Positions 7,540-18,707 of a stretch of 64,000 nt of DNA are shown here, in pieces. Below the pieces are notes generated by a model, which ran no database searches, had not been told where the DNA came from, and worked only from the letters and a program-made list of their open reading frames with translations. The position numbers and the translations under genes were made by a program. Source of the stretch: Pempheris klunzingeri (lineage: Eukaryota > Chordata > Actinopteri > Acropomatiformes > Pempheridae). The stretch spans positions 15,051,338 through 15,115,337 of the forward strand of contig NC_092028.1 of assembly GCF_042242105.1 (NCBI RefSeq), read 5' to 3'. The number at the start of each line of letters is the position of its first letter. Position 1 is the first letter of the stretch.

Positions 7540-7613
7540 CTGGATCAGAAAATTCATTTGGGAACAAAAAGTATCATTGCAGATCAATGAGCTGGGTGTT
7601 TCATCATTTCCAG
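7540..7613 (-). ncRNA. Box C/D snoRNA, family B copy 1 (in 3' UTR intron of tnpo2)
   Basis: Read on the minus strand: terminal stem CTGGA/TCCAG, C box ATGATGA, D' guide ACCCAGCTCA before TTGA, a C'-like AATGATA and D box CTGA. It lies in the intron 7444-7645, which is downstream of the tnpo2 stop codon. Its 3' end is about 95 nt from the next splice acceptor, a usual spacing for intron-processed C/D snoRNAs. The part before the D box differs from the other family B copies (CCCAAATGAA). Confidence 0.75.
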
Positions 7614-7686
7614 AGCTGAGCTGCAGAGACGTTTGCTGGACGTACCTAACAGGCCAGTGTCCTGTGTCGACCAGGGGGTTGTTGGG

Positions 7687-10600
7687 TTAGACGCCGTAGC
7701 AGGCCGACAGGCGCTCCTTCAACAGAGGAGGAAACTGCTCAGAGAACTGCTGCCAGTTCTCTTCTCCAACCTGGTCCTTAAAGCCGTGCAAGATCTTGGA
7801 AGAGAAAACAGAAACCATCAGGAAGTTCTCTACATACTTAAAATGGCTGGTTTAAGCTTGAACAGTTGTGCCTTGATTCCCCCAGGCACGGCTTCGTTAT
7901 GGCTCTGGCAGCCAATCCCGGCTACTCTAGATGAGATTGCGATTCATCTTAACTTCATCTAACTATCCTAGCACTGACTTGAATGTTGTGAAAATCTACC
8001 CCCCCCCTTCCATTTGCAGAGAGCTCTGCCCACACTTCTCAGATTCAAAAAGTCATCCGCACCATGTAATCAGATTTCGAATGTCTGATAAGTGATCATC
8101 ACAGTGTGGCGAAGCAGCACTACACATGGGAAGGGAACATTTTACTGACAGCAGTAGTTATCTAAAGTGAGATCCGATCCGTCCATCAGATCAACGTGTG
8201 CAACGATACGGGATCAGTCCTTGTGATGAGGCGCTCACCTTGTAAAACATGTCTCTCAGATCGTCCTTGGGATTGACCCAGGAGGCCACAGCGTCACAGA
8301 AGAAAATGAAGTCCTGGACAGAGAGGCCGTGTTACTTCATCACACACTGAGGTAGAGCTCCTTCAGCTCTCTCACCCCTGTAGCCCCCCCCCCCCCCGAC
8401 AGCTTTAAAACACAACACCTCACCTGCACCACTCCAGCAGGGTTGACGCCGATCATCACACAGATTCCCCGGAAGGCCGAGTCCTTCTCCTCGTTGTCTC
8501 TGATATTTCTCAACGATGTGCACCTGAGCGAGACAAAAGGCAAAACTATTCATTCGGTACTCGTTTAAGTTTCCACTGGTATTCCTGATGAGCTAAAGTT
8601 GAGTTTTCCCATCGATTATTTTATTTTTTCCTCATTGTTTCCCAAAGGCCAACAATTTTTGCTTTTTTCTGAACTAATAAAACCACATTCCTTCTTATTC
8701 TAAACAACATTGATTTCTTAATAATACTGATAGGCGTGACTCACCATGGTCTAATGAATTGCTGCAGCTGTGGTGCCACTTCTTGGGGACAGACGTAACC
8801 CAGCCGGCCGATCGTAATGGCTGCACACAGTAACACGAAAGAATAACAATTCATTCCCTGATGTGACCACAAGATCATTTGTAACGTCTGAAACACACCC
8901 TAGACTAAAGCTCTGTGTGAACGACCGTTTGTGTACCTGTGTTTTCCAGCAGAGTCTTGGGCGTGTTGGGTCTGTTGATGATCTCCACCAGGTGGGGCAG
9001 GACCATGCTCACATAGGGCTGCATCTCTGCACCTGGAGAGACACGTGACAGAGAGCAAACACAGCTTTAAACATCAGCAGTGTGGATAATTCATGGCGAT
9101 TACAAGGCGTGGCACTAAAAACTGCCACTTTCTTCAAAGAAGTAAAACCCATTTTATGGTACATTTAAAAAAAAAAAATAAAAAATTGTTCCAACAACCA
9201 CACTTGCTTTATGTGTAGAAAAGTATTAAATGTGTTGAGAATACTTCACTGCATTCATTATGCAACATAATACTGTTATTGCACAATCACATCAATAATT
9301 TAATGACATCACATATCTGCTGTGATACTAAATCATTTAGTTGTGTGAATCTAATCCACTCTTTTACAATAAAATGACACAAGTTAACTTTTAGTTTGAA
9401 TGTTGAAATATATTCAAAAATGCAGTAAATGACAACTAATACAAAGTGGTCTGGACACCTTTCTTGTGACATTGGATTCTTTATCTACTGATTGCTGTTG
9501 CAGAAGTCCTGAACAACACTCTGGTCACTATATTTCCATATTTTAAAAAAGGTTCAATTCAAACCCGCAGCCATCATTGTTATCAACGGGTGTTTGCAAG
9601 TACAAGGAGATCAACAAAGAAAGATACTGGGCGCTTGTTTTCAGAAGTGATGCCTTCTGGTCTACTCACCCATTTGCATGGAGATCTCTCCGATGGCCCA
9701 GGTGGCGTTGTTACACACCGAGATGAACTCTGGGTTCAGGTTGAGCCCCAGGATGGGCATGAACTCAGCTGGAGGGAGGACACGGACACACAGCGGTTAT
9801 AATACAATCACTTACACACGCACATAATTCCTTACAACCACCCGTCTGTAATTCTCCCCGAATGCCAGACAAGCAGAGGACAGGTGATGTAATTCAATCT
9901 GTCTGAGGCAGAATTACTCAGCTCTCTGATGAAGCACACTCACCAATGCAGGGTTTAACATGGAGGAAGCACGCCTTGGTTAGATCGCCCAGCAGAGCGA
10001 AGGAGCTTTGCCTCACCTCGGGCATAGTATCCTGCGACACAAACGGGACAGCTTAACAGTATACTTGTACAGTTCAGAATAAATCGCCCTGATACACGTT
10101 CGGGTGCATTTCACACCCACAGAAGATGTGGACACACTCCCTCATACCTGCATGCACTGGAAAAGTAGGGTCATGATGTTAGAGCGGGCCACTAGCTGCT
10201 CCACGTGACCCCCCAAACCCTCAGCCAGGCCGCTCAGCAGATCCAAGGCCACAATCATAAAATCCTTGTCAGGAGCCTCATACTGGTCTGGGTGCTGGTT
10301 GTACATCTGGACAGACAAATTACATCGCATGCTCCATGTTAAAGTGAAAGATCCCTTAGTACTTGACATATTAATGGTATGTGGACGTGGGTGTGCACTC
10401 TCACCATAGCCTGAGCTAGTGTCTTCTGGACTAATGTGACACAGCGCTGATAGACGGGCTCACAGTAAGGCAGAAAGCCACTCTGCAGGGCGGTGGCTAC
10501 TGACGACAGACACTGGAAGAGAAAACGTTATTTGTAGAAGGCACGCAATTTGTGTTTTTTTTTGGCAGGAGAGACTCCTGACAGCAGCAACAATTCTGTT

Positions 10601-18504: not shown

Positions 18505-18635
18505 CCTGAAAAACACACACGCACATGGGATTTAATTCACACATTAATATAGTTCTCAACATGTTTTCCCAATGTATTTCTATAATTCACATAGAATACT
18601 AAAATGAACTGAGGAGAATTAGGTAAGCAAGTGGT

Positions 18636-18707
18636 CTCTGGATCAGACAGTATGAATACAAACACCATCAGTGGAAGTCAGATGTTTCTGATGCATCATC
18701 TCCAAAG
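18636..18707 (-). ncRNA. snord41: Box C/D snoRNA, family A (SNORD41-like) copy 3
   Basis: Stem CTTTGGA/TCCAGAG (one G-U pair), C box ATGATGC, D' box CTGA and D box CTGA. Guide GTATTCATACTGT precedes the D box. It lies in the intron between the 5' UTR exon and the exon bearing the tnpo2 start codon, about 130 nt upstream of the acceptor. Confidence 0.72.

What the first reader, a model, noticed from the sequence alone, without database searches (positions are those of the whole stretch)
7540..18707. Lineage-expanded set of intronic box C/D snoRNAs in tnpo2
Nine intact-looking C/D elements plus one decayed copy sit in ten different introns of one host gene, all in host orientation. They form two families that share the terminal stem. 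Human TNPO2 is known to me for a single snoRNA, SNORD41. Spread of copies over many introns with preserved boxes suggests a fish-specific expansion, and family B may not be catalogued.
Basis: partly seen in the sequence, partly recalled or inferred. Interest (0 to 1): 0.75.

Follow-up and report, generated by a model that had tools for sequence, protein, structure and literature searches.

The report
Multi-copy rRNA-methylation guide snoRNAs in tnpo2
A fish nuclear-import gene (tnpo2) carries nine intact-looking small guide RNA genes in its introns: three copies of the known SNORD41 and six of an uncatalogued family predicted to methylate a cytosine in the large ribosomal RNA that yeast and slime mould methylate but for which no human counterpart was found listed.

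Summary
Nine box C/D elements (7539-18707, minus strand, host sense) lie in nine introns of an intact tnpo2 gene (two UTR introns inferred), with a decayed tenth copy in intron 2. A strict pattern gives nine hits on the host strand, none elsewhere in the 64 kb, against 0.017 expected. Family A (three copies) is SNORD41, though only one copy reaches Rfam's threshold. Family B (six copies) reaches none. Its conserved D' guide pairs 9-10 bp with LSU UGAGCUGGGU; the +5 rule selects the cytosine equivalent to yeast Cm2948, with no human counterpart in the table seen. The invariant GUUCC between C' and D pairs with LSU GGAAC one base away, like a known accessory guide. B3 arose by local DNA duplication that carried part of exon 8; its snoRNA stayed 97% identical to B6 while the intron flank fell to 82%. 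Expression, methylation, other fish and the rest of the genome were not tested. The zebrafish guide catalogue was not readable and may already hold family B.

The parts
7687..18504 (-). tnpo2 host gene, coding part (23 coding exons, 889 aa)
   Evidence: tblastn with a recalled TNPO2 bait, splice-site fitting, PDB transportin-1 match over residues 2-889
7539..7614 (-). B1, family B C/D snoRNA in an inferred 3'-UTR intron, 95 nt from its AG
   Evidence: (92.6 bits)
11450..11522 (-). B2, family B, intron 12, 91 nt from the 3' splice site
   Evidence: 81.4 bits
12060..12132 (-). B3, family B, intron 11, 282 nt from the 3' splice site
   Evidence: 102 bits
12106..12115 (-). D' guide of B3 (ACCCAGCUCA), 10 Watson-Crick pairs with LSU UGAGCUGGGU; box D' UUGA at 12102-12105
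12078..12082 (-). Invariant GUUCC of B3, proposed accessory guide pairing with LSU GGAAC one base 5' of the D' duplex
11893..11940 (-). Relic of the first 48 bases of exon 8, duplicated together with B3; the acceptor AG is still present at 11941-11942
   Evidence: 42 of 48 bases identical to exon 8
13233..13304 (-). B4, family B, intron 10, 274 nt from the 3' splice site
   Evidence: 98.6 bits
13144..13167 (-). Probable short exon-8 relic next to B4 (22 of 24 bases)
   Evidence: score 40, 1 of 300 shuffles as high
13972..14044 (-). B5, family B, intron 8, 141 nt from the 3' splice site
   Evidence: 101.7 bits
14627..14699 (-). B6, family B, intron 7, just upstream of real exon 8, 137 nt from the 3' splice site; source-like copy of the duplication
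   Evidence: 96.5 bits
15598..15668 (-). A1, SNORD41-like, intron 5, 425 nt from the 3' splice site
   Evidence: 38.0 bits to RF00588, below the 41-bit threshold
16827..16900 (-). A2, SNORD41-like, intron 3, 88 nt from the 3' splice site; box C is CUGAUGC
   Evidence: 31.0 bits, below threshold
17746..17794 (-). B7, decayed family B copy in intron 2 (guide region with a change, GUUCCC and a CUGA kept; no recognisable box C or terminal stem)
   Evidence: 18.3 bits, E 0.031, model positions 16-68 only; sequence
18636..18707 (-). A3, SNORD41, in the inferred intron upstream of the start-codon exon, 130 nt from its AG
   Evidence: 47.6 bits, E 2.6e-6, above the 41-bit threshold

Best explanation
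The locus is a snoRNA host gene. Each intron carrying an element is spliced from tnpo2 pre-mRNA and trimmed to a C/D snoRNA of about 70 nt that binds fibrillarin and the other core proteins (inferred from the known pathway). Family A is SNORD41 and guides with the segment before box D. Family B guides with the segment before box D' (UUGA): ACCCAGCUCA pairs with the LSU rRNA segment UGAGCUGGGU, and the fifth base from D' selects the cytosine equivalent to yeast 25S C2948. The invariant GUUCC between C' and D pairs with GGAAC next to that duplex, as an accessory guide that strengthens recognition; the rest of the D-box side is not conserved. B3 was made by DNA duplication within the gene that brought part of exon 8 with it (shown), B4 probably likewise; how the other copies arose is not shown. 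Several copies then stayed under selection or were homogenised, probably as a dosage increase. Shown: anatomy, conservation pattern, pairing to the LSU consensus, and the duplication behind B3. Inferred: expression, methylation, accessory role, dosage.
For: 9 hits against 0.017 expected. Host-sense position in introns of a gene with an open reading frame. SNORD41 match above threshold for A3. The models of A and B find each other's copies weakly and nothing convincing outside tnpo2. All six B copies: 9-10 Watson-Crick pairs with UGAGCUGGGU, +5 base C. Rfam's SNORD29 consensus, run through the same script, puts its +5 base on the A two bases upstream, the same spacing as the published Am2946 and Cm2948. 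The target is in the eukaryotic LSU consensus, and a longer word holding it occurs exactly in at least 114 stretches of prokaryotic genome records (four checked, all LSU rRNA). GUUCC is the longest invariant run between C' and D and pairs one base from the D' duplex in 6 of 6; a random 5-mer does so within 0-3 bases with frequency 0.004. B3/B6: snoRNA 71 of 73 bases identical against 92 of 112 plus 31 gap columns in the intron flank, Fisher p 0.0019 on substitutions; exon-8 relic next to B3. Accessory guides and within-gene duplication of snoRNAs are documented (PMC5389607, PMC8522698, PMC2653536; passages).
Against: No RNA or methylation data. The target was recognised from recall and then tested; no full fish 28S/18S was available for an unbiased scan. 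Box D' is UUGA, not CUGA, and box C' is AUGAUAC, not RUGAUGA. B2 pairs over only 9 bp. The accessory pairing is 5 bp in B3-B6 (6 with a G-U pair), and single-copy shuffles hold some such 5-mer in 2-12%. B3, B4 and A1 lie 274-425 nt from the 3' splice site, outside the range usual for splicing-coupled C/D snoRNAs (recalled), and B3 has no external stem. A1 and A2 miss the SNORD41 threshold. All three A copies differ from the Rfam SNORD41 consensus at two of the 13 guide bases before box D. The relic beside B4 is short (1 of 300 shuffles scored as high), and no relic was found beside B1, B2 or B5; the 3' flank of B5 holds an A-rich stretch, so retroposition is not excluded for these.
Confidence: 0.72

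Rival explanations
1. Real snoRNA family, but most copies are silent relics: only one or two B and A copies (those 88-141 nt from a 3' splice site) make RNA; the others are duplicates not yet decayed.
For: B7 is plainly decayed. B3, B4 and A1 are badly placed, and B3 lacks an external stem. A1 and A2 fall below the SNORD41 threshold.
Against: Boxes, stem and D' guide are intact in all six B copies, including B1 and B2, which are only 76-87% identical to the others. The snoRNA part of B3 stayed more similar to B6 than its intron flank did.
Confidence: 0.25
2. Family B guides something other than the LSU cytosine, for example another RNA or splicing of its own host pre-mRNA, and the rRNA match is secondary.
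For: D' box and C' box are imperfect; no unbiased target scan was possible. Intronic snoRNAs that regulate host splicing are reported (PMC10324135, seen only as a search listing with the start of its abstract).
Against: A 10-nt exact match to rRNA in the right register before D' (9 nt in B2), at a site methylated in yeast and Dictyostelium, with the same hexamer AGCUCA that Rfam's SNORD29 uses two bases away. The guide with D' is the longest invariant stretch of the six copies.
Confidence: 0.12
3. Family B is a diverged SNORD29 that still serves the neighbouring adenine (human Am4493).
For: All six copies match RF00070 weakly (20.3-23.8 bits). For B2, SNORD29 has the lowest E-value of the 15 matches listed, with AGCUCA aligned and a two-base gap before D'.
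Against: Threshold is 48 bits. The gap moves the +5 base from A to C. In B1-B4 (4 of 6 copies compared), with guide and boxes masked, SNORD29 does not stand out from six other C/D families.
Confidence: 0.07
4. The repeats are an ordinary transposable element that happens to look like a snoRNA.
For: Many similar copies in one gene; a nearby inverted-repeat element shows that mobile DNA is probably present. The 3' flank of B5 has an A-rich AAAACAAAA stretch.
Against: No copy outside tnpo2 in the 64 kb (best match of the B model outside the gene 10.6 bits). No antisense copy: the one antisense match (16.5 bits) lies on A2 itself. The similarity between most pairs stops at the snoRNA ends plus a few stem bases, and I saw by eye no clear tail with target-site duplication in the printed flanks. 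The duplication behind B3 carried intron and exon sequence.
Confidence: 0.03

Closest known systems
SNORD41 / U41 (Rfam RF00588)
   Different: Three copies here. A1 and A2 are below threshold. The guide has A and U at two positions where the Rfam consensus has G.
snR69 of yeast (Cm2948) and CD15 of Dictyostelium (Cm3281)
   Same: Same predicted target nucleotide as family B; table in PMC8817022 and, for yeast, PMC5199042 (passages).
   Different: Sequence homology to snR69 or CD15 was not tested; human and Arabidopsis entries are blank in the PMC8817022 table.
SNORD29 / U29 / snR71 (RF00070)
   Same: Same LSU stretch, guide hexamer AGCUCA before D'.
   Different: Two extra bases before D' make SNORD29 address the adenine two bases upstream; family B scores 20-24 bits against a threshold of 48.
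Accessory-guide C/D snoRNAs (yeast snR13; suggested for vertebrate SNORD53 and SNORD92)
   Same: Second short pairing next to the guide duplex (PMC5389607, PMC8522698; passages).
   Different: In B the second pairing is only 5-6 bp and untested; for U18 the extra pairing had no effect in the yeast test described.
Intragenic (cis-) duplicated vertebrate snoRNA paralogues
   Same: Copies in several introns of one host (PMC2653536, passages). SNORD87 has four genes each in zebrafish and frog, one in human (PMC3349704, passages).
   Different: Here an exon fragment marks the duplicated DNA of one copy, and two different guide functions are multiplied in one gene.

Membership tests
Box C/D snoRNA | Box C, box D and terminal stem at the right spacing | tested here: met
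   9 of 9 elements, 0.017 expected; box C of the three A copies ends in C, and A2 begins with C
Box C/D snoRNA | Internal C' and D' boxes | tested here: met
   Degenerate. B: UUGA ... AUGAUAC (GUGAUAC in B4), with UUGA and UGAUAC invariant; A: CUGA and a UGA-containing C'
Box C/D snoRNA | Intronic, host sense | tested here: met
   Host sense 9 of 9; 7 of 9 in fitted coding-region introns, 2 of 9 in UTR introns inferred from sequence
Box C/D snoRNA | Guide of about 10 bp to a stable RNA with a +5 target | tested here: met
   Family B only: 10 bp in 5 of 6 copies, 9 bp in B2, against the eukaryotic LSU consensus, not the species' own rRNA. Family A guide not tested against rRNA
Box C/D snoRNA | Expressed RNA bound by fibrillarin, NOP56, NOP58, SNU13 | not testable with these tools
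   No RNA data
SNORD41 (RF00588) | Rfam gathering score 41, family A copies | tested here: inconclusive
   A3 47.6 (met); A1 38.0, A2 31.0 (not met)
SNORD41 (RF00588) | Rfam gathering score 41, family B copies | tested here: not met
   23.6-30.6 bits for five copies; B2 18.2
SNORD29 (RF00070) | Gathering score 48 and +5 base on the adenine | tested here: not met
   20.3-23.8 bits, six of six copies; +5 base is C
SNORD103/85 (RF00188) | Gathering score 45 | tested here: not met
   Best 38.1 (B1); the three B alignments shown match stem and boxes, with a 10-base gap in the D' guide region
snR69 functional equivalent | Guides methylation of the C2948-equivalent cytosine | tested here: inconclusive
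   Predicted by pairing and calibrated register; methylation not measured
Transposable element | Dispersed copies outside the host | tested here: inconclusive
   None convincing in the 64 kb; genome search not answered

The most novel reading that the evidence does not exclude
This fish lineage methylates an LSU cytosine near the peptidyl-transferase centre (yeast C2948; position recalled) that the table seen leaves blank for human, using a previously unnamed six-copy snoRNA with two-part target recognition. It either arose from SNORD41 inside tnpo2 by gaining a D' guide and losing the D guide, or slipped from a SNORD29-like guide by losing two bases before D'.
Probability: 0.4. Interest if true: 0.55.

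Novelty: new member of a known kind. Interest (0 to 1): 0.42.

Why it matters
If the predicted methylation is real, one vertebrate lineage keeps or regained a modification listed in yeast and Dictyostelium but not, in the table seen, in human, and devotes six snoRNA copies to it. That makes a clean test of whether snoRNA copy number sets methylation level, and of whether accessory pairing helps a guide with poor internal boxes. The exon-8 relic beside B3 is direct evidence of how at least one intronic snoRNA copy was made: by DNA duplication within the host gene.

Tried and rejected

Led nowhere: eukaryotic LSU contigs covering the SNORD41 target or other LSU parts (0 hits); cmscan of four of the 114 prokaryotic stretches as possible eukaryotic contaminants (archaeal or bacterial rRNA); literature on fish TNPO2/SNORD41 (one paper: 13 papers, judged by listing only, not opened; for the wider questions). 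Passages looked up without a result bearing on the site or on tnpo2: PMC6954239, PMC6670005, PMC8351944, PMC8210301, PMC2653536 for the site. The zebrafish RiboMeth-seq paper of 2020 is not held. From recall only, its abstract reports 98 sites, 10 not known from other vertebrates, with cognate SNORDs, so family B or its target may be in it. Also not held.

Full report
What is there. A strict scan for box C, box D and a terminal stem of at least 6 bp finds nine elements in 7000-18800, all on the minus strand, none on the other strand and none in the rest of the 64 kb; 300 dinucleotide shuffles of the gene region gave a mean of 0.017 and never more than 1. The C-box pattern was widened after seeing the elements, because A2 has CUGAUGC. 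A looser earlier scan gave 19 hits over the window: 8 are these elements (A2 was missed by its C-box pattern) and 11 are others, 7 on the minus and 4 on the plus strand, which I did not pursue.

The host. A recalled TNPO2 bait finds the exons; fitting splice sites gives an open 889-residue frame over 23 coding exons, matching transportin-1 structures from residue 2 to 889. That it is tnpo2 and not tnpo1 rests on identity to the recalled sequence, on SNORD41, and on an RFX gene nearby (the human neighbourhood is recalled). Elements lie in introns 3 (A2), 5 (A1), 7 (B6), 8 (B5), 10 (B4), 11 (B3) and 12 (B2). A3 lies before the AG of the start-codon exon (upstream exon not mapped), and B1 in a 3'-UTR intron inferred from GT and AG sequences. 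A decayed B copy is in intron 2.

Family A. A3 is SNORD41 at 47.6 bits, above the threshold of 41. A1 and A2 score 38.0 and 31.0, below it. The 26 bases TTTGTATTCATACTGTCTGATCCAGA are identical in all three, so the segment before box D is the conserved guide. Within the 13 bases before box D it differs from the Rfam consensus at two (G to A and G to U); whether the fish rRNA has matching changes could not be tested.

Family B. No Rfam family reaches threshold for any of six copies; the best is SNORD103 at 38.1 of 45, where the alignments shown match stem and boxes. In the alignment of six copies the invariant runs of four or more bases are UGGA of the stem, UGAUGAAA of box C, CCCAGCUCAUUGAU, UGAUAC of box C', GUUCC, and UCUGAUCCA at the end. 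The rest of the C'-to-D segment differs in sequence and length. The D' side is therefore the conserved guide.

Target. ACCCAGCUCA directly before box D' (UUGA) pairs by 10 Watson-Crick pairs (9 in B2) with UGAGCUGGGU of the eukaryotic LSU consensus RF02543. A 32-base word holding this segment occurs exactly in at least 114 stretches of prokaryotic genome records (the scan stopped at its limit), and the four I checked are LSU rRNA, so its presence in the fish is close to certain though not read. By arithmetic, a 10-base match to about 7 kb of rRNA is expected 0.007 times per guide. I recognised the segment from recall and then tested it, so this was not an unbiased scan. The +5 base is C. The register was calibrated with Rfam's SNORD29 consensus, which pairs over 7 bases and whose +5 base falls on the A two bases upstream. 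The published table has Am2946 (snR71, human U29 Am4493) and Cm2948 (snR69, Dictyostelium Cm3281), two bases apart, with human and Arabidopsis blank for the latter (PMC8817022, passages; yeast value also in PMC5199042, passage).

Accessory pairing. GUUCC is the longest invariant run between C' and D. It pairs with GGAAC of the LSU, one base 5' of the D' duplex, in 6 of 6 copies; in B1 and B2 it extends to GUUCCC/GGGAAC. A random 5-mer pairs within 0-3 bases of the duplex with frequency 0.004; shuffles of single copies hold some such 5-mer in 2-12%. The strength of the case lies in its being the invariant part. Its distance from box D varies (7-12 bases), which argues against a +5 guide there. 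Such extra pairing affects methylation for yeast snR13 (PMC5389607) and is suggested for vertebrate SNORD53 and SNORD92 (PMC8522698) (passages); for U18 it had no effect in the test described there.

How it spread. B6 with its downstream intron and the start of exon 8 aligns to B3 with a relic of that exon inside intron 11 (275 columns, 76% identity, E 6e-51). Within that duplication the snoRNA has 71 of 73 identical bases, the intron flank 92 of 112 with 31 gap columns (Fisher p 0.0019 on substitutions), and the exon relic 42 of 48. Selection, or gene conversion confined to the snoRNA, would both do this. B4 has a probable short relic (22 of 24 bases; 1 of 300 shuffles scored as high). No relic was found beside the other seven copies tested, so how these arose is open; B5 has an A-rich stretch 3' of it. 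Intragenic duplication is an established route (PMC2653536, passages), and a trend to lower C/D copy number in placental mammals is reported (PMC3349704, passages).

Processing. Distances to the 3' splice site are 88, 91, 95, 130, 137, 141, 274, 282 and 425 nt. The range usual for splicing-coupled C/D snoRNAs (about 70-80 nt, recalled) is approached by three. Of the distant ones, A1 and B4 have extended outer stems; B3 does not.

Relations of A and B. They match each other's models weakly (B model on A copies 20-28 bits, A model on B copies 17-28 bits). B also matches other C/D families about as well. Common origin is possible, not shown.

What limits the claim. No expression or methylation data; no other fish; no answer from the genome search. 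Frog has four 28S sites reported as absent in human (Gm432, Cm1113, Gm3534, Cm4013; PMC8797249, passage); I did not map them to this position. A review gives zebrafish 60 sites in 28S (PMC8393311, passage); the primary paper is not held, so the site may already be known there.

Verdict. A well-formed set of intronic C/D snoRNA genes; family A known, family B a new member of a known kind as far as Rfam 15 shows, with a specific and cheap prediction. Interest moderate.

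Noticed in passing
11893-11942: Relic of exon 8 inside intron 11 keeps an AG acceptor and clear exon similarity; it could act as a cryptic exon or decoy splice site downstream of B3.
   Followed up: partly
16910-17134: A short stretch with 19-nt inverted ends (84% complementary; TTGGTAGGGCTGGGCACCG), like a non-autonomous DNA transposon, sits just beside A2.
   Followed up: partly
15598-15668, 16827-16900, 18636-18707: All three SNORD41 copies carry the same two changes in the guide relative to the Rfam consensus, which may track changes in the fish 28S target.
   Followed up: no
38879-44382: Exons of an RFX-family transcription factor gene on the plus strand (RFX1 activation region and RFX BCD domain), in line with synteny to human 19p13 (recalled).
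   Followed up: partly
17651-17718: A 13.4-bit, E 0.53 match to the family B model in intron 2, next to B7; perhaps a further relic, perhaps chance.
   Followed up: no
8039-8102: A loose C/D-like pattern in tnpo2 intron 22 on the host strand, not in either family and without an Rfam match up to E 5; probably chance.
   Followed up: no
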